Shown here: piece by piece, positions 16,173-25,184 of the stretch
How positions within the stretch are numbered: the first letter of the stretch is position 1
Layout of the letters: each line of letters begins with the position of its first letter
Source of the DNA: Ruminococcus sp.
Lineage (GTDB): Bacteria; Bacillota; Clostridia; Oscillospirales; Ruminococcaceae
Assembly: GCA_017521805.1 (NCBI GenBank)
Contig: JAFXDK010000088.1
Span: 1 to 46,215, forward strand
Direction of reading: 5' to 3'
DNA length: 46,215 nucleotides
The notes under the pieces: model-generated
What the model was told of the DNA's origin: nothing
Databases searched by the model: none
The model's input: only the letters and a program-made list of their open reading frames with translations
Program-made: the position numbers and the translations under genes

Positions 16173-16859
16173 ATGGATAATCTTTCAGAAAAGCTTATGG
16201 AAGAACTCGAAAACCACACTGCGTTTACCATACCAATTTTCGGAGGTATACCCGTCCCCGATTCCTGTGCTGTATCGTGGATAATCATTGCAGTGGTGGT
16301 ACTGCTTTCAATTATCCTGACGCATAATATGAAAAAAGTACCGCAGGGAAAGCAATGTCTGCTTGAAATCGGCATAACGTGGATGAACGACTTTTTCCTT
16401 GATACTCTCGGGCCACACGGAAAAAAGTATCTGCCAATACTGGAAACATTCATGATATACATAGGATTTTCCAATCTTATCGGCTTATTCGGCTTTGTAC
16501 CGCCAACCAAGGATATCAACGTAACAGTAGCCCTTGCAGTTATGGCATCCATATTGATACAGGTTGCAGGCTTCAAGGAAAAGGGCGGAAAAAAATGGGC
16601 AAAGGGATTTTTAGAGCCAATGCCGGCAATGCTTCCAATGAATCTGCTGGAGCTTGTAACCCGTCCCCTTTCAATGAGTATGCGACTTTTCGGCAATGTT
16701 TTAGGCGCATTTGTTGTAATGGAGCTTATAAAGATATGCATACCGGGAGGTATACCCGTGCCGTTCAGCCTTTATTTTGACATATTCGACGGCGCAATTC
16801 AGGCATATGTATTTGTATTCCTCACATCTCTCTTTATGGCAGAAGCTATTGAGGAATAG
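16173..16859 (+). CDS. atpB: ATP synthase F0 subunit a
   Basis: This 228-residue integral membrane protein forms the ion half-channels beside the c ring. Five or six hydrophobic helices are visible, and the key segment RPLSMSMRLFGNVLGAF carries the essential arginine (equivalent to E. coli aArg210), followed by an IQAYVFVFLTSLFMAEA helix. The start is preceded by AAGGTGAT. It is the first gene of the operon; neither atpI nor another gene precedes it. A 260-base repeat-filled gap separates it from atpE, which is unusual inside an atp operon. Confidence 0.96.
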   Translation: MDNLSEKLMEELENHTAFTIPIFGGIPVPDSCAVSWIIIAVVVLLSIILTHNMKKVPQGKQCLLEIGITWMNDFFLDTLGPHGKKYLPILETFMIYIGFSNLIGLFGFVPPTKDINVTVALAVMASILIQVAGFKEKGGKKWAKGFLEPMPAMLPMNLLELVTRPLSMSMRLFGNVLGAFVVMELIKICIPGGIPVPFSLYFDIFDGAIQAYVFVFLTSLFMAEAIEE

Positions 16860-17359: not shown

Positions 17360-17851
17360 ATGCTTAAATTTGAATTCTGGAATATTTTCTGGACGGTATT
17401 CAACGTACTTCTGCTTTTTGTACTGCTCAGAATATTCCTGTTTAAACCTATCAACAAAATGCTGGATGACCGCACCCAAGCAATTCAAAAGGACTACGAC
17501 GACGCTGAACGCGCACGCAGGGAAGCCGAGGAGCTGAAAGCTCAGTACGACACTTCTATCAGCGAGGCTAAGGAGGAAGCTGCAAAGATACTCCGCACCG
17601 CCCATGAAGAAGCCGAAAACGAGCGTGAGGCAATTATCCGCAAATCCCACGAGGAAGCGGAAAATATCGTTGCCGCCGCAAGTGAAACTATTGAAAACGA
17701 GCGCAAGCGCGTAATCCGTCAGGCACATTCCGAAATCGCAGACCTTGCTGTTGAAGCGGCTTCAAAAATTGTAGGCGCAAATCTGGACGACGAAAAGAAC
17801 CGTAAGCTTGTTGATGAGTTCCTTTCCGCAGAGGAGGCTGACCGCAGATGA
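17360..17851 (+). CDS. atpF: ATP synthase F0 subunit b
   Basis: This 163-residue peripheral-stalk protein has one N-terminal membrane helix (about 6-28) and a long charged helix rich in Ala, Glu and Arg, which dimerises. The segment [13 protein letters not shown] directly after the membrane helix is typical of b subunits. Its stop overlaps the start of the delta-alpha fusion gene (ATGA). The b dimer should bind the delta part of that fusion. Confidence 0.95.
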
Positions 17852-19872
17852 AAGATACAGCCAAAGAATTTCTCAACGAGTTGGTGCGGCTGAATATTCC
17901 GCGAGAGGATATCGAAACCGCCAAGGGCATATTTGCCGCCTGTCCCGATGTAAAGGACACATTGGCAAATCCCCTTATAACCTTTGACGAAAAGCGAATC
18001 GCCATAAAGCAGATTTTCCCCAAATCCCTTGAACGTCCCATGGCAAATGCCGCAAAATCGGGAGTTATCGAGGATTTAGACGAAATATTTGAAGCATATC
18101 AGGATATACTCCTTGAAAAACAGAAAAGCATCAAGGCAGTTGTCCGCTATGTCACACCTCTGACGGAAAATCAGCAGGCGGAGCTTCGCCGCTTCATCAA
18201 GGAAAAATTCACCAAAGAAGACGTAGACATCGAATACAAACACGACCCCGATATTATCGGCGGCTTTATCCTCAGCGCAGGAGATGTGGAATTCGACCGC
18301 AGCTACCGCACAAGTCTCCGTTCAATCCGTGAATCCCTGAAACAGAAAGCAAATGAAAGCGTAACAATAAGCGGAAAGGATTTCAAATCAAAGGATATAA
18401 TATCCGTTCTCAAAACAGAGATAAAGGATTTTGAAGTCCGTTCAGGCGCGTCCGAAACAGGCTTTATTATCCGTCTCGGCGATGGTATCGCCCGTGTCCG
18501 CGGCATGAGCGGAGTTATGTACGGCGAGCTTGTGGAATTTGAAACAGGTGTACGCGGTATTGTCCAGAATATCGAGGATAATTCTGTGGGAATCGTACTT
18601 CTTGGCGACGACTACGGACTTACCGAGGGCTCAACAGTAGTACGCACCTGCAAGCGCGCAGGAATCGGCGTAAGCGACGAGCTTTTAGGCAGAGTTGTAG
18701 ACGCTCTGGGCTCAGCAATCGACGGACAGGGACAGATACACGCGGAGGACTACTTCCCCATTGAGCGTGAAGCCCCCGGTGTTATCGAGCGCAAGCCCGT
18801 AAACGTCCCCTTGCAGACAGGCATACTTTCCATTGATTCCATGTTCCCTATCGGCAGAGGACAGCGTGAGCTGATTATCGGCGACAGACAGACAGGCAAG
18901 ACTTCAATTGCCATAGATACAATAATCAACCAGAAAGGGCAGGACGTTATCTGCATTTATGCAGCTATCGGTCAGAAATCCTCAACAGTTGCACAGGTTG
19001 TAAATACCCTTAAAAAGTACGGCGCAATGGATTATTCCGTAGTTGTAACAGCATCGGCTTCTGAGCCTGCGCCTTTCCAGTATATCTGCCCTTATTCCGC
19101 CACAGCAATTGCTGAATACTTCATGTCAAAGGGCAAAGACGTACTTATCATATACGACGACCTTTCAAAGCATGCCGTTGCATATCGTGCAATGTCCCTG
19201 CTGCTGCATCGTCCCCCGGGACGTGAAGCATACCCCGGAGACGTTTTCTATCTCCATTCGAGACTGCTTGAGCGTTCAAGCCGACTTGATGATGAACACG
19301 GCGGCGGCTCACTTACAGCACTGCCGATTATAGAAACTCTTGCAGGCGATATTTCGGCATATATCCCCACAAATGTAATATCAATCACCGACGGACAGAT
19401 TTTCCTTGAAAGCGAACTTTTCAATTCAGGACAGCGTCCTGCGGTAAACTATGGATTATCCGTATCCCGTGTAGGCGGTGCAGCGCAGACAAAGGCAATG
19501 AAAAAGGCGGCAGGAAATCTCCGTATCGACCTTGCACAATTCAAGGAAATGGAGATATTCACCCAGTTTTCATCGGAGCTTGACCCTGCAACATCGGAGC
19601 TTCTTGCCCACGGTCATATGCTGACGGAAATGCTGAAACAGCCCTTGTACAATCCCCGTCCCCACTATGAGCAGGTTATACTGCTGTATGCCGCCCAGCA
19701 CGGACTTTTCAAGCACGTTACACCAAAGGAGCTTAAAGAGTACATCTCCGAGCTGATGAGCTATATCAACAGCTACGGACAGGATATTATTGCAGAAATC
19801 GAAGAAAACCGCGTACTCACCGACGACCTTATGGAGCGTATCGAGCGCATAGTCACAGCATTTGAGGAATAA
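17848..19872 (+). CDS. atpHA: Fused ATP synthase F1 subunit delta-alpha
   Basis: One open frame of 674 residues joins two normally separate subunits. Residues 1-165 are delta: [10 protein letters not shown] near 41-50 in the N-terminal helical domain, and [14 protein letters not shown] near 133-146 in the stalk-binding domain. After a short linker (about 166-180), residues 181-674 are a full alpha subunit beginning [12 protein letters not shown], with GDGIARVRG, Walker [10 protein letters not shown] (345-353), [14 protein letters not shown] and the arginine-finger region [11 protein letters not shown]. No stop codon, ribosome site or in-frame ATG/GTG/TTG sits at the junction. F1 normally holds one delta and three alpha, so the fusion poses a stoichiometry problem. 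Confidence 0.95.
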
Positions 19873-22217: not shown

Positions 22218-22628
22218 ATGGCAAAGACATTTTATCTTGAAATAATTACCTCAAACCGCGTATTTTTTCAGGGCGACTGCGAGCATCTCGTAATAACCGC
22301 CATAGACGGACATATGGGCATACTTGCAGGCCATGAGCCCCTTGTAACGTCACTCCCCACAGGAGAGCTGAAATATATGGTTGAGGGCGAATGGAAATAT
22401 GCCGCCATATCAGAGGGATTTATCGAAGTTCTCCCCGACAGAGCCGTAATTCTTGCGGATTCCTGCGAGCTTCCCGAGGAAATCGACATAAAGCGCGCCG
22501 AGGAAGCAAGGGAACGTGCCGAGGAAATGCTCCGACAGCAGCAGAGTATCCGCGAATACTACGAAACACAAGCGGCACTTAACCGCGCCATGAACAGACT
22601 TAAAATATCCCAGAAACATTTTAAGTAG
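22218..22628 (+). CDS. atpC: ATP synthase F1 subunit epsilon
   Basis: This 136-residue subunit has the N-terminal beta sandwich (ITSNRVFFQGDCEHLVITAI, GHMGILAGHEPLV) and a C-terminal pair of helices (about 88-133, RAEEARERAEEMLRQQQ) that can inhibit rotation. It lies two bases after atpD and closes the atp operon. No terminator is evident; the secD promoter follows within 100 bases. Confidence 0.94.
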   Translation: MAKTFYLEIITSNRVFFQGDCEHLVITAIDGHMGILAGHEPLVTSLPTGELKYMVEGEWKYAAISEGFIEVLPDRAVILADSCELPEEIDIKRAEEARERAEEMLRQQQSIREYYETQAALNRAMNRLKISQKHFK

Positions 22629-22719
22629 CTAAATATTGGCACTCTCTGTTGATATCACCAAAAATACAGTGCTCAAATTGTGCAAAATTTCAAAATATGC
22701 CCATTTACAATGTATATGC

Positions 22720-22748
22720 TTGACTTTTACTGTGAAATATTGTAAAAT
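22720..22748 (+). promoter_or_regulatory. Sigma-A promoter for secDF
   Basis: TTGACT and TAAAAT are 17 bases apart, about 60 bases before the secD start. Confidence 0.65.
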
Positions 22749-22809
22749 AATAGTAATTGTCACAGACAAAAATCAAGGGAAATTTTTTCCCGAACAGGAG
22801 GCAAAAGAC

Positions 22810-24219
22810 GTGAAAAAGATTCACAAATCCACTTTCTTCATTGTCGTTGCTATTATTGCGTTATTCGCAGTCTCCACAATCACAGGATTCGATTACTTCT
22901 ACGGCGATAACAAGACTACCGTCGTAAAGGGCGTTGACGATATCCGTCTTGGTATTGATATACAGGGCGGCGTTGACGTAACATTCGCTCCTTCAGGAGA
23001 CTACGACGCTACCGATGATCAGCTTGACTCTGCTACTGAGATTATCAAAACCCGTCTCAGTTCACTCGGTATCAACGACAACGAAATTTACAGCGACACC
23101 AAATCAGACCGTATTATCGTACGTTTTCCATGGCAGGCAGGCGAAAGCGAATATGATGCAGAAGCCGCTGTTAAGGAGCTTGGCGAAATGGCTGAGCTGA
23201 CTTTCCGCCGCGGAAGTGACTACGATACCGACGAGGAGGGAAATATCACCCCTACAGGCGAAATCGTTCTTACAGGTGCCGATATCGCAAACGCTGATTA
23301 TGGCTATTTCCCCGATGATAACGGCAGCTATGAATGGGTGGTAACCCTTGACCTCAACACAACAGGCAAGGACGCTTTCGCAGCTGCTACTGCTGAGCTT
23401 GCAGGCACAGGTACTCCCATTTCCATCTGGATGGATAACACCATGATATCCGCTCCTAATGTAAACGAGGCTATTACAGGCGGCGAAGCTCAGATTACAG
23501 GTGATTTCGACGAAAACTCATCCAAGAAGCTTGCAAACCAGATTAATTCAGGCGCACTTCCTTTCAAAATGGAGACAACAAGCTTCAAGACAATCTCATC
23601 AACTATGGGTGAGGGTTCTCTCGACGCTATTATCCTTGCCGCATTAATCGCATTTGTTTTCATTGCGATATATATGATTGTACTCTATAAAGTACCCGGC
23701 GTTGTAGCTATCATTGGTATCATCGGACAGATTGCCGCAACTCTTGCAGCTGTAACAGGCTGGTTCGGCTTTATGCCCGGTTCAACTCTTACAATTCCCG
23801 GTATTGCGGGTATTATCCTTGCTGTAGGTATGGGTGTTGACGCTAACATCATCACAGGTGAGCGTATCAAGGAGGAGATCCGTTCAGGAAAATCTCTGGA
23901 ATCCGCTATCCGCGTGGCTTACAAGCGTGCATTCTCCGCTATCCTTGACGGTAACATCACTAACGTTCTTATCGCAATTATTCTTATGGGTGCTTTCGGA
24001 GTTCCTACAAGCTTCTTCTCAAAGATTCTCAACAAAACAGTATTCTTCATGTTCGGTGCAACAACTGAGGGTGTTGTATACTCCTTCGGCTTCACACTCC
24101 TTGTAGGTGTTATATGTAACTTTATCTTCGGCGTATTCGCTTCAAGAATCATGGTTACATCACTTTCCAAGTTCAAGGGTCTCCAGAACAGAAAGCTTTA
24201 TGGAGGTGATGTCAAGTGA
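22810..24219 (+). CDS. secD: Protein translocase subunit SecD
   Basis: I take the GTG at 22810 (VKKIHKST) as start, preceded by GGAGG; the frame is open further upstream but that part overlaps the promoter. The 469-residue protein has one N-terminal membrane helix, a periplasmic-type domain with LGIDIQGGVDVTF and DLNTTGKDAF, and five C-terminal membrane helices with the SecD signature AVGMGVDANIITGERIKEE. SecD with SecF uses the proton gradient to help complete protein export. The stop overlaps the secF start. Confidence 0.95.
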   Translation: MKKIHKSTFFIVVAIIALFAVSTITGFDYFYGDNKTTVVKGVDDIRLGIDIQGGVDVTFAPSGDYDATDDQLDSATEIIKTRLSSLGINDNEIYSDTKSDRIIVRFPWQAGESEYDAEAAVKELGEMAELTFRRGSDYDTDEEGNITPTGEIVLTGADIANADYGYFPDDNGSYEWVVTLDLNTTGKDAFAAATAELAGTGTPISIWMDNTMISAPNVNEAITGGEAQITGDFDENSSKKLANQINSGALPFKMETTSFKTISSTMGEGSLDAIILAALIAFVFIAIYMIVLYKVPGVVAIIGIIGQIAATLAAVTGWFGFMPGSTLTIPGIAGIILAVGMGVDANIITGERIKEEIRSGKSLESAIRVAYKRAFSAILDGNITNVLIAIILMGAFGVPTSFFSKILNKTVFFMFGATTEGVVYSFGFTLLVGVICNFIFGVFASRIMVTSLSKFKGLQNRKLYGGDVK

Positions 24220-25184
24220 GTAAGAAAAAGAAACAGGTAGCTGCTGCAGCTGCTCCGGATTGCAAAATCTACAACTTCTGCGGAAAGAAAAGAATGATTC
24301 TTGCAATCGTTATATGCGTTGTTGTTGCTCTCCTTGCAGGCATCCTCATCAGAGGCGTTGACCTTGCTATCGAGTTCAAGGGCGGTACAATGCTCACCTA
24401 CTCATATGAGGGTGACCTCGATACAAACGGCGTAAAATCAGCCGCTGAGGAGATTGTAAATACTCCCGTTACTATCCGTACAGGTGAAAGCCTTGAGGGT
24501 AACGGACATCAGATAACACTTTCCTTTACATCTGAGGAAGGACTTAACGCAGACAAGCAGTATGAGCTTACAAATGCTCTTAACACAAAGTATCCCGACA
24601 ATAAGCTTGCGCTTTTCGATTCAAACGACGTAAGCCCTGCTTCAGGACGCGAATTCCTGCTGAAATGTCTGCTTGCAATGGTTGTTGCGGCTATACTCAT
24701 CATCATCTACATCGCTATCCGATTCCAGAAAATCGGTGGCTGGTCTGCCGGTGTATGCTCAATATTCGCACTTTGCCACGACCTTATGGCTGCACTTGCG
24801 GCTTCAATCCTTTTCGGATTTGAGTTCAATGCAAATATCGTTGCGGTAATTCTTACAATTCTCGGTTATTCTATCAATAACACAATCGTTATCTATGACA
24901 GAATCAGAGAGAACAAGACACTTTATCCCAACGCTACACTGAATGAGCTTATCAACATGGGATGTTCACAGTCTCTTACACGTTCAATCAGAACATCTAT
25001 TACAACAATCGGTACAATGATTATCGTATCAATCGTTGTATTTGTAAGCGGCTATACATCACTGCTCAGCTTCTCAGTTCCGCTTATCTTTGGTCTTATT
25101 TCAGGTACTTACTCATCACTCTTTGTTGCACCTGTAACATGGTCATGGCTGATGAATAAGAAAGCTGCTAAGAATTCCAAGTAA
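24216..25184 (+). CDS. secF: Protein translocase subunit SecF
   Basis: This 322-residue membrane protein starts with GTG overlapping the secD stop (GTGA) and has GGAGGTGAT upstream. It shows the RGVDLAIEFKGGTMLTY segment after the first helix and the signature ILTILGYSINNTIVIYDRIREN in the C-terminal membrane domain. The separate secD and secF genes contrast with the fused SecDF of Bacillus, as is common in Clostridia. The N-terminus carries an extra basic and alanine-rich cytoplasmic stretch. Confidence 0.95.
   Translation: MSKKKKQVAAAAAPDCKIYNFCGKKRMILAIVICVVVALLAGILIRGVDLAIEFKGGTMLTYSYEGDLDTNGVKSAAEEIVNTPVTIRTGESLEGNGHQITLSFTSEEGLNADKQYELTNALNTKYPDNKLALFDSNDVSPASGREFLLKCLLAMVVAAILIIIYIAIRFQKIGGWSAGVCSIFALCHDLMAALAASILFGFEFNANIVAVILTILGYSINNTIVIYDRIRENKTLYPNATLNELINMGCSQSLTRSIRTSITTIGTMIIVSIVVFVSGYTSLLSFSVPLIFGLISGTYSSLFVAPVTWSWLMNKKAAKNSK

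What the first reader, a model, noticed from the sequence alone, without database searches (positions are those of the whole stretch)
17848..19872. ATP synthase delta and alpha subunits fused in one reading frame
The frame reads through from a complete delta subunit (about residues 1-165) into a complete alpha subunit (181-674) with no stop, ribosome site or in-frame ATG/GTG/TTG at the junction. All key residues of both parts are intact and the rest of the operon is normal. F1 normally contains three alpha and one delta; in E. coli delta binds the N-terminal helix of one alpha. A fusion implies three delta copies around the crown, or a processing or re-initiation step that frees alpha. The fusion I know of in this complex is the mycobacterial b-delta protein; I do not recall a described delta-alpha fusion. 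It could reveal a new peripheral-stalk architecture.
Basis: partly seen in the sequence, partly recalled or inferred. Interest (0 to 1): 0.88.

Follow-up and report, generated by a model that had tools for sequence, protein, structure and literature searches.

The report
Fused delta-alpha ATP synthase subunit
In Ruminococcus gut bacteria, two parts of the ATP-making motor that are normally separate proteins, one present once and the other three times, are encoded as a single chain, which should give the motor three attachment points for its side stalk instead of one and may let it run on a weaker energy supply.

Summary
Window 17848-19872 encodes one 674-aa chain: delta N-terminal domain (NTD), delta C-terminal domain (CTD), linker, complete alpha. 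It is not an assembly error: 88 of 100 genomes drawn from the genus (named members: Ruminococcus) have the same unbroken frame, and in 39 of 46 it is the only delta found. No start codon with a ribosome-like site lies at the junction in any of 36 distinct genus members, against 32 of 44 separate alphas. The fusion recurs across Bacillota; one clade of all fused forms is rejected (p-AU 0.0075, quick tree). In the class sample 29 of 42 fused frames lack the NTD, and NTD-less forms also lie among full fusions on the tree. The NTD-less form is not new: Ueno et al. [quoted passage not shown] I found no description of the full-length form (ten paper searches). Most likely reading: three b-docking sites per F1, permitting more than one stalk. 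Stalk number is inferred, not shown; one stalk with two idle deltas is the main rival.

The parts
17848..18132 (+). delta N-terminal domain (residues 1-95) of the fusion; helix-1 pattern absent
   Evidence: Pfam OSCP from residue 19; pattern count and identity by domain; dN over whole-gene dS 0.133
18133..18342 (+). delta C-terminal domain (residues 96-165), the b2-docking part (role from the literature)
   Evidence: Pfam OSCP to residue 164; matches PS3 and other delta chains; dN over dS 0.045
18343..18393 (+). linker (residues 166-182), no in-frame start codon
   Evidence: dN over dS 0.401
18394..19872 (+). alpha subunit (residues 183-674) and stop codon
   Evidence: TIGR00962 746.5 bits over residues 180-673; Pfam
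16173..16859 (+). atpB, subunit a
   Evidence: Pfam PF00119
17105..17344 (+). atpE, subunit c; Ile at the position of the Na+-binding Gln, so H+ type predicted (motif recalled, not from a call)
   Evidence: Pfam PF00137; frame read
17360..17851 (+). atpF, subunit b, 163 aa
   Evidence: Pfam PF00430
19882..20793 (+). atpG, subunit gamma
   Evidence: Pfam PF00231
20818..22215 (+). atpD, subunit beta
   Evidence: Pfam PF00006 and others
22218..22628 (+). atpC, subunit epsilon
   Evidence: Pfam PF02823, PF00401

Best explanation
The gene makes one delta-alpha chain (shown: an unbroken, selected, conserved frame with no internal ribosome-like site; inferred: no cleavage). Because F1 holds three alphas, each F1 carries three deltas (inferred). 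Each delta C-terminal domain is a docking site for a b2 stalk tied to its own alpha, so F1 has three docking sites and can carry more than one b2 stalk and a subunit, raising H+/ATP, as the engineered PS3 enzyme does (inferred by analogy). The delta N-terminal domain, which in ordinary enzymes sits on the threefold axis and is held to limit stalks to one, is kept in Ruminococcus under looser selection than the C-terminal domain and without its usual first-helix pattern, and is missing in many other fused lineages; I read the full-length fusion as a stage at which that domain no longer decides stalk number. A low-gear enzyme of this kind would suit Rnf-driven anaerobes with a weak ion-motive force.
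For: Frame complete in 88 of 100 genus genomes; sole delta in 39 of 46. Start with ribosome-like site in the junction zone: 0 of 36 distinct genus members (control zones inside alpha: 5 and 8 of 36), 4 of 66 full fusions of all lineages, 32 of 44 separate alphas. At matched alpha identity the delta CTD of the genus is more conserved than that of separate deltas (0.64 v 0.39 at alpha 75-80%), and NTD/CTD identity is 0.62-0.71 for alpha 75-95%, against 0.79-0.91. dN over whole-gene dS: alpha 0.029, CTD 0.045, NTD 0.133, linker 0.401 (28 pairs). NTD-less rows lie among full-fusion rows (L168 with L153, support 100; L069 and L097; L092 and L119), and L168 keeps only the last NTD helix. 21 of 29 NTD-less-type genomes show no full delta anywhere, likewise 6 of 14 fused genomes. 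Spacing from the delta DxS motif to the alpha helix: window 31, full fusions median 29 (n=66), NTD-less median 25 (n=74); 24 in engineered 9jc1 (counted by me from the alignment). Engineered protein: up to three stalks, H+/ATP 5.8 v 3.0. RnfC over its cut-off in 42 of 46 genus genomes.
Against: The NTD is still there and under purifying selection in Ruminococcus, and Ueno et al. conclude that the NTD restricts stalks to one. At matched alpha identity the fused NTD is not more diverged than that of separate deltas (0.40 v 0.34 at alpha 75-80%): the looseness is only relative to the CTD. Full fusions of other lineages do not show the pattern clearly (NTD/CTD ratio 0.67-0.85 for alpha 55-90%, about 1.0 above; CTD 0.45 v 0.39 at 75-80% but 0.64 v 0.65 at 85-90%), and 12 of 29 of them keep the helix-1 pattern. 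No structure, stoichiometry or H+/ATP datum for this enzyme was found; structure prediction never ran. 20 of 74 NTD-less frames have a start with a ribosome-like site near the junction, although no more than in control zones (25 and 21 of 74). Subunit b and the operon look ordinary, with no extra a or b gene. Pairs and rows share ancestry and are not independent.
Confidence: 0.48

Rival explanations
1. Single-stalk enzyme: all three alphas carry a delta, but one N-terminal domain takes the axial seat on the crown, only that chain's C-terminal domain binds b2, and the other two deltas hang idle or cap the head.
For: NTD kept under selection in the genus; the NTD is said to limit stalks to one; a and b genes single and ordinary.
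Against: NTD-less forms lie inside full-fusion clades with the operon kept; helix-1 pattern absent in 36 of 36 distinct genus members; if two of three CTDs were idle one would not expect the CTD to be better conserved than in separate deltas, yet in the genus it is.
Confidence: 0.33
2. Processing or re-initiation makes free alpha from the same frame, so that the complex ends with one delta-alpha (or free delta) and two plain alphas.
For: Would restore the usual 3:1 ratio. In NTD-less frames of other lineages 16 of 75 have an ATG with a ribosome-like site in the junction zone, against 3 and 13 of 75 in control zones (the 75 include L173, which is not a fusion). The linker is the fastest-evolving part in the genus, as an exposed cleavable segment would be.
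Against: No start with a ribosome-like site in any of 36 distinct genus members; no in-frame start between residues 148 and 219 in the window. No conserved linker motif is evident in the alignment of 24 fused sequences. Proteolysis not testable here.
Confidence: 0.13
3. The fused operon is a decaying copy and the canonical operon on contig C66 does the work.
For: The own genome has a canonical operon with separate delta and alpha.
Against: 39 of 46 genus genomes have only the fused delta; alpha dN over dS 0.029; the operon's genes all match their Pfam families as open frames.
Confidence: 0.03
4. Assembly or sequencing artefact (missed stop or frameshift).
For: The genome is a 112-contig assembly with 3.85% contamination.
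Against: Same unbroken frame in 88 of 100 genus genomes at 66-95% identity and in named records such as Ruminococcus flavefaciens RUG10602.
Confidence: 0.01

Closest known systems
Engineered delta-deltaN-alpha fusion of Bacillus PS3 FoF1 (Ueno et al. 2025, PMC12229609; PDB 9jc1, linked to that paper by me from its description and chain make-up)
   Same: Delta C-terminal domain joined through a short linker to the alpha N-terminus, three such chains in the entry; nearly the same spacing (24 v natural medians 25 and 29).
   Different: Man-made; delta residues 2-104 removed, whereas the window keeps the N-terminal domain; stalk number measured there, unknown here.
Natural delta-alpha fusion of Acidaminococcus fermentans and UniProt G4Q3K6, A0A1I2C5T3 (noted in PMC12229609)
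   Same: Natural fusion of delta and alpha in one gene.
   Different: Reported to lack the delta N-terminal domain; the window has it. Not compared by sequence here.
Mycobacterial b-delta
   Same: Covalent fusion involving delta (PDB 9vkp chain d is listed as b-delta).
   Different: Partner is b, not alpha (one delta per complex recalled, not from a call).
N-ATPases
   Same: Delta absent or fused (there with b), per passages of PMC11738941.
   Different: Other gene order and alpha family; the window alpha scores 606.5 against a cut-off of 750.5 for TIGR03324.

Membership tests
F-type ATP synthase operon | a, c, b, delta, alpha, gamma, beta, epsilon in one cluster | tested here: met
   Pfam hits in order, delta and alpha in one frame
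delta-deltaN-alpha (multi-stalk) type of Ueno et al. | delta C-terminal domain fused in frame to the alpha N-terminus | tested here: met
delta-deltaN-alpha (multi-stalk) type of Ueno et al. | delta N-terminal domain absent | tested here: not met
   OSCP match from residue 19 (profile 23-172), domain under selection
delta-deltaN-alpha (multi-stalk) type of Ueno et al. | more than one peripheral stalk and a subunit per complex | not testable with these tools
   needs the purified enzyme
Mycobacterial b-delta | delta fused to b | tested here: not met
   b is a separate 163-aa frame
N-ATPase | alpha of the alternate F1F0 family | tested here: not met
   TIGR03324 606.5 bits, cut-off 750.5
N-ATPase | gene order beta-epsilon-X-X-a-c-b(delta)-alpha-gamma | tested here: not met
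   window order a-c-b-(delta alpha)-gamma-beta-epsilon; order of N-ATPases

The most novel reading that the evidence does not exclude
[quoted passage not shown] the full-length form shows that the delta N-terminal domain can be present and yet not hold the stalk number at one. The H+/ATP ratio would then be two to three times the usual.
Probability: 0.42. Interest if true: 0.93.

Novelty: new variant of a known kind. Interest (0 to 1): 0.78.

Why it matters
One peripheral stalk and one a subunit per F1 is the standard picture of F-type ATP synthases, with H+/ATP set by c-ring size. A conserved natural fusion that puts three stalk-docking domains on every F1, and is the only delta found in 39 of 46 genomes of a gut genus, gives cultivable organisms in which the multi-stalk prediction of Ueno et al. 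can be tested directly. If true, energy budgets of rumen and gut fermenters would need revision. The natural series separate - full fusion - NTD-less fusion also tests what the delta N-terminal domain is for.

Tried and rejected
Internal start or ribosome site at the junction: searched, none in the genus. Long open frame alone as a sign of fusion: rejected after L173 (G550), where the upstream part of the frame does not read as delta; L173 was still counted as NTD-less and set to separate. Absolute relaxation of the NTD: not supported. Weak OSCP match on contig C19 (758-aa frame): taken by me as chance after reading the protein (no family search was run on it). Ion type from subunit c: Ile at the Gln position in 69 of the 71 full-fusion loci, repeats included, where a c subunit was found, not decisive. 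b'-deltaCTD-alpha triple fusion: one genome only; its family holds that one genome and no second case appeared among 51 genomes of its order. Plasmids: one weak hit, a Sphingomonas delta. Structure prediction was asked for 13 times and never started, so no model or fold search supports this report. Papers: searches; in their listings I saw no paper on a full-length delta-alpha fusion, but most listed papers were not opened, the library lacks most subscription papers and bioRxiv, and supplements (including Suppl. Fig. 9 of Ueno et al.) could not be read.

Full report
OBSERVATION. The window (46215 bases, contig C69 of G000: 2.54 Mb, 112 contigs, 90.7% complete, 3.85% contamination) holds an F-type ATP synthase operon in the order a, c, b, delta-alpha, gamma, beta, epsilon. 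Delta and alpha lie in one frame, 17848-19872, 674 aa, whose ATG overlaps the atpF stop. Pfam finds OSCP at 19-164 and the three alpha domains between 202 and 672; TIGR00962 (atpA) scores 746.5 bits over 180-673. There is no in-frame ATG, GTG or TTG between residues 148 and 219.

NOT AN ERROR. The chain was searched in 100 genomes drawn evenly from the genus. 88 have a complete unbroken frame (66-95% identity, 670-700 aa); G036, G061 and G033 show it cut or in two pieces; G016, G082 and G083 have separate genes; G054 shows a separate alpha only; G017, G022, G037, G067 and G094 (64-82% complete) show no alpha of this type. Eight named records at 67-85% identity (L037-L044) are Ruminococcus, among them R. 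flavefaciens RUG10602, all fused, and four unnamed genus rows are identical in alpha core to named Ruminococcus rows.

IS THERE ANOTHER DELTA? PF00213 was sought in 46 genomes (the own genome plus 45 at least 95% complete; the same search rang in 9 of 14 control genomes): 44 have the fused frame, 2 (G082, G083) only a separate delta, 5 (G000, G042, G084, G116, G118) both, 39 only the fusion. The own genome belongs to the minority with a second, canonical operon, on contig C66, where delta and alpha are separate frames and alpha is 56% identical. Its third, weak match on contig C19 I take as chance.

IS FREE ALPHA MADE? A start codon preceded by a ribosome-like site was sought in a 35-codon zone around the usual alpha start and in two control zones inside alpha, on distinct sequences (which corrects). 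Genus: 0 of 36 (controls 5 and 8 of 36). All full fusions: 4 of 66 (8 and 20). NTD-less fusions: 20 of 74 (25 and 21). Separate alphas: 32 of 44 (8 and 14). So re-initiation is unlikely in the genus; in the NTD-less frames such sites are no commoner than in control zones, though with ATG alone they are somewhat commoner (16 of 75 against 3 and 13, one of the 75 being no fusion). Proteolysis is untested.

HOW WIDE? The 80 best named loci comprise 26 full fusions, 30 NTD-less fusions (delta-CTD-alpha) and 24 separate; this set is chosen by similarity and is no census. A junction profile (24 rows) was searched in 393 genomes of the class, at least 90% complete: 42 show an unbroken fused frame (12 full; 29 NTD-less, one of them, G191, cut by its contig's end; 1 triple) in 17 family codes; 225 of 393 had any match. 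The list of matches was cut, so this is a lower bound. In the family: 14 of 118 (G550's long frame rejected after reading). In the phylum sample: 18 of 398, 13 of them outside the class, all NTD-less; a further row there, G797, spans the junction in a frame cut short and was not read. I read the sequences of all fused class rows but two (G165, G213), of all 14 family rows and of all 13 rows outside the class. In the 16 NTD-less loci whose upstream frames I listed (L070, L079, L087, L105; L158, L159, L162, L165, L198, L201, L204; L069, L092, L097, L119, L168) an atpF frame of 155-201 aa is followed directly by the fusion.

N-TERMINAL DOMAIN LOST. PF00213 was sought in 32 genomes with fusions: 3 full (G134, G548, G616) and 29 NTD-less (the triple G502 among them). 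Of the 29, 8 also hold a full-length separate delta (G130, G163, G197, G325, G502, G668, G735, G870) and 21 show none, among them the one-contig genomes G142, G184, G359 and G643. In an earlier set of 14 fused genomes (a 15th, L079's, is not held) 8 had a separate delta and 6 none, those 6 all NTD-less. A very divergent NTD elsewhere could be missed.

HISTORY. On an alpha-core tree without delta (111 rows, quick method) the genus fusion is one clade, apart from the Lachnospiraceae fusions; holding all 86 fused rows together as one clade is rejected (p-AU 0.0075, lnL lower by 89.6). On a wider tree of 145 rows (I left out repeats, most Ruminococcus rows and 16 named near-duplicates) the three states need 19 changes; starred branches force at least 9 for the full and 6 for the NTD-less label. 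The quick method has known weaknesses with long rows; direction and number of gains cannot be read from it, and transfer between species is possible. NTD-less rows sit among full-fusion rows: L168 with L153 (support 100), L069 and L097 in one 98-supported group with seven full fusions, L092 and L119 with L051 and L057 (85). L168 still begins with the last helix of the NTD and overlaps atpF as L153 does, as expected of a deletion from a full fusion.

SELECTION. Among 33 distinct genus members, 28 pairs with whole-gene dS 0.05-0.9 give median dN over whole-gene dS of 0.029 for alpha, 0.045 for the CTD, 0.133 for the NTD, 0.401 for the linker (which corrects for repeats). At matched alpha identity the genus CTD is more conserved than that of separate deltas (0.64 v 0.39 at 75-80%; 0.81 v 0.65 at 85-90%) while the NTD is about equal (0.40 v 0.34; 0.55 v 0.51); NTD/CTD is 0.62-0.71 against 0.79-0.91 for alpha 75-95%, and 0.88 in the genus above 95%. 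Full fusions of other lineages do not show this clearly: ratio 0.67-0.85 for alpha 55-90% and about 1.0 above, CTD 0.64 v 0.65 at 85-90%. A helix-1 pattern of my own is present in 35 of 43 separate deltas, 12 of 29 full fusions of other lineages and 0 of 36 genus members. Helices 1 and 5 of OSCP bind the alpha N-terminal helix (PMC4057687, passages). Pairs share ancestry: these are trends, not tests.

MECHANISM. Shown: one selected frame, recognisable CTD and complete alpha, short linker. Inferred: three chains per F1, three b2-docking domains. In Bacillus PS3, deleting the delta NTD and fusing the CTD to alpha gave a and b at 2.2 and 1.8 times the usual, up to three stalks by cryo-EM, H+/ATP 5.8 against 3.0 and equilibrium pmf 68 against 133 mV (PMC12229609: outline and abstract, passages, whole Discussion). 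PDB 9jc1 holds such a chain in three copies (a PS3 delta CTD, a Gly-Ser linker, alpha) and was the second-best PDB match to the window protein; that it belongs to that paper is my reading. Natural spacing between the delta DxS motif and the alpha helix is close to the engineered 24 residues (counted by me): median 25 (n=74) in NTD-less forms, 29 (n=66) in full fusions, 31 in the window. I therefore rank more than one stalk first, but the retained and selected NTD, which those authors hold to limit stalks to one, is a real objection, and I give it 0.48. RnfC is over its cut-off in 42 of 46 genus genomes, so an ion pump that could drive synthesis is present; the direction of the enzyme in the cell is unknown.

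NOVELTY. The same authors note a natural delta-alpha fusion without NTD in Acidaminococcus fermentans and two UniProt entries. New here, as far as my searches go: the full-length form, its fixation in a genus as the only delta of most genomes examined, the breadth in Bacillota, the evidence for more than one origin, and an intermediate. Passages of ProAD (PMC11738941) mention delta fused to b in N-ATPases; passages of COGcollator (PMC5706428) do not mention this fusion; passages of a butyrivibrio energy paper (PMC4478896) count F0F1 as complete in all 62 genomes and call its stoichiometry uncertain. Databases probably list the domain architecture automatically (recalled, not checked).

Noticed in passing
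G000 contig C66 (loci L001, L005, L007), outside the window: Second, canonical F-ATPase operon with separate delta (179 aa) and alpha; similar second alphas of 52-60% identity appear in G021, G034, G042, G043, G080, G084 and G093.
   Followed up: partly
L167:1176-3398 (-), genome G502: A 741-aa chain b'-deltaCTD-alpha after a separate b gene: a three-subunit fusion that would tie one b' to each alpha (Pfam ATP-synt_B match below its cut-off). One genome only (6% contamination), no second case in 51 genomes of its order.
   Followed up: partly
L168:985-2808 (-) and L153:1225-3246: Sister sequences on the alpha tree: one a full fusion, the other with the N-terminal domain missing but for its last helix.
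   Followed up: yes
L196-L208 (other classes of the phylum): NTD-less delta-alpha fusions in lineages far from the window; some with a Gln or Asp at the ion-site position of subunit c.
   Followed up: partly
L048: A lone full fusion inside an otherwise separate Mediterraneibacter-like clade; recent fusion, or an assembly quirk.
   Followed up: no
G045:C31 and G045:C41: Two copies of the fused gene with the same score on two contigs of one genome (6% contamination).
   Followed up: no
G033:C43:56883-58896: Fused gene in two pieces (query 1-514 and 533-674), perhaps a frameshift or insertion.
   Followed up: no
window 22636-25184: Two membrane-protein frames downstream of the operon that look like SecD and SecF (recalled resemblance, not searched).
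   Followed up: no
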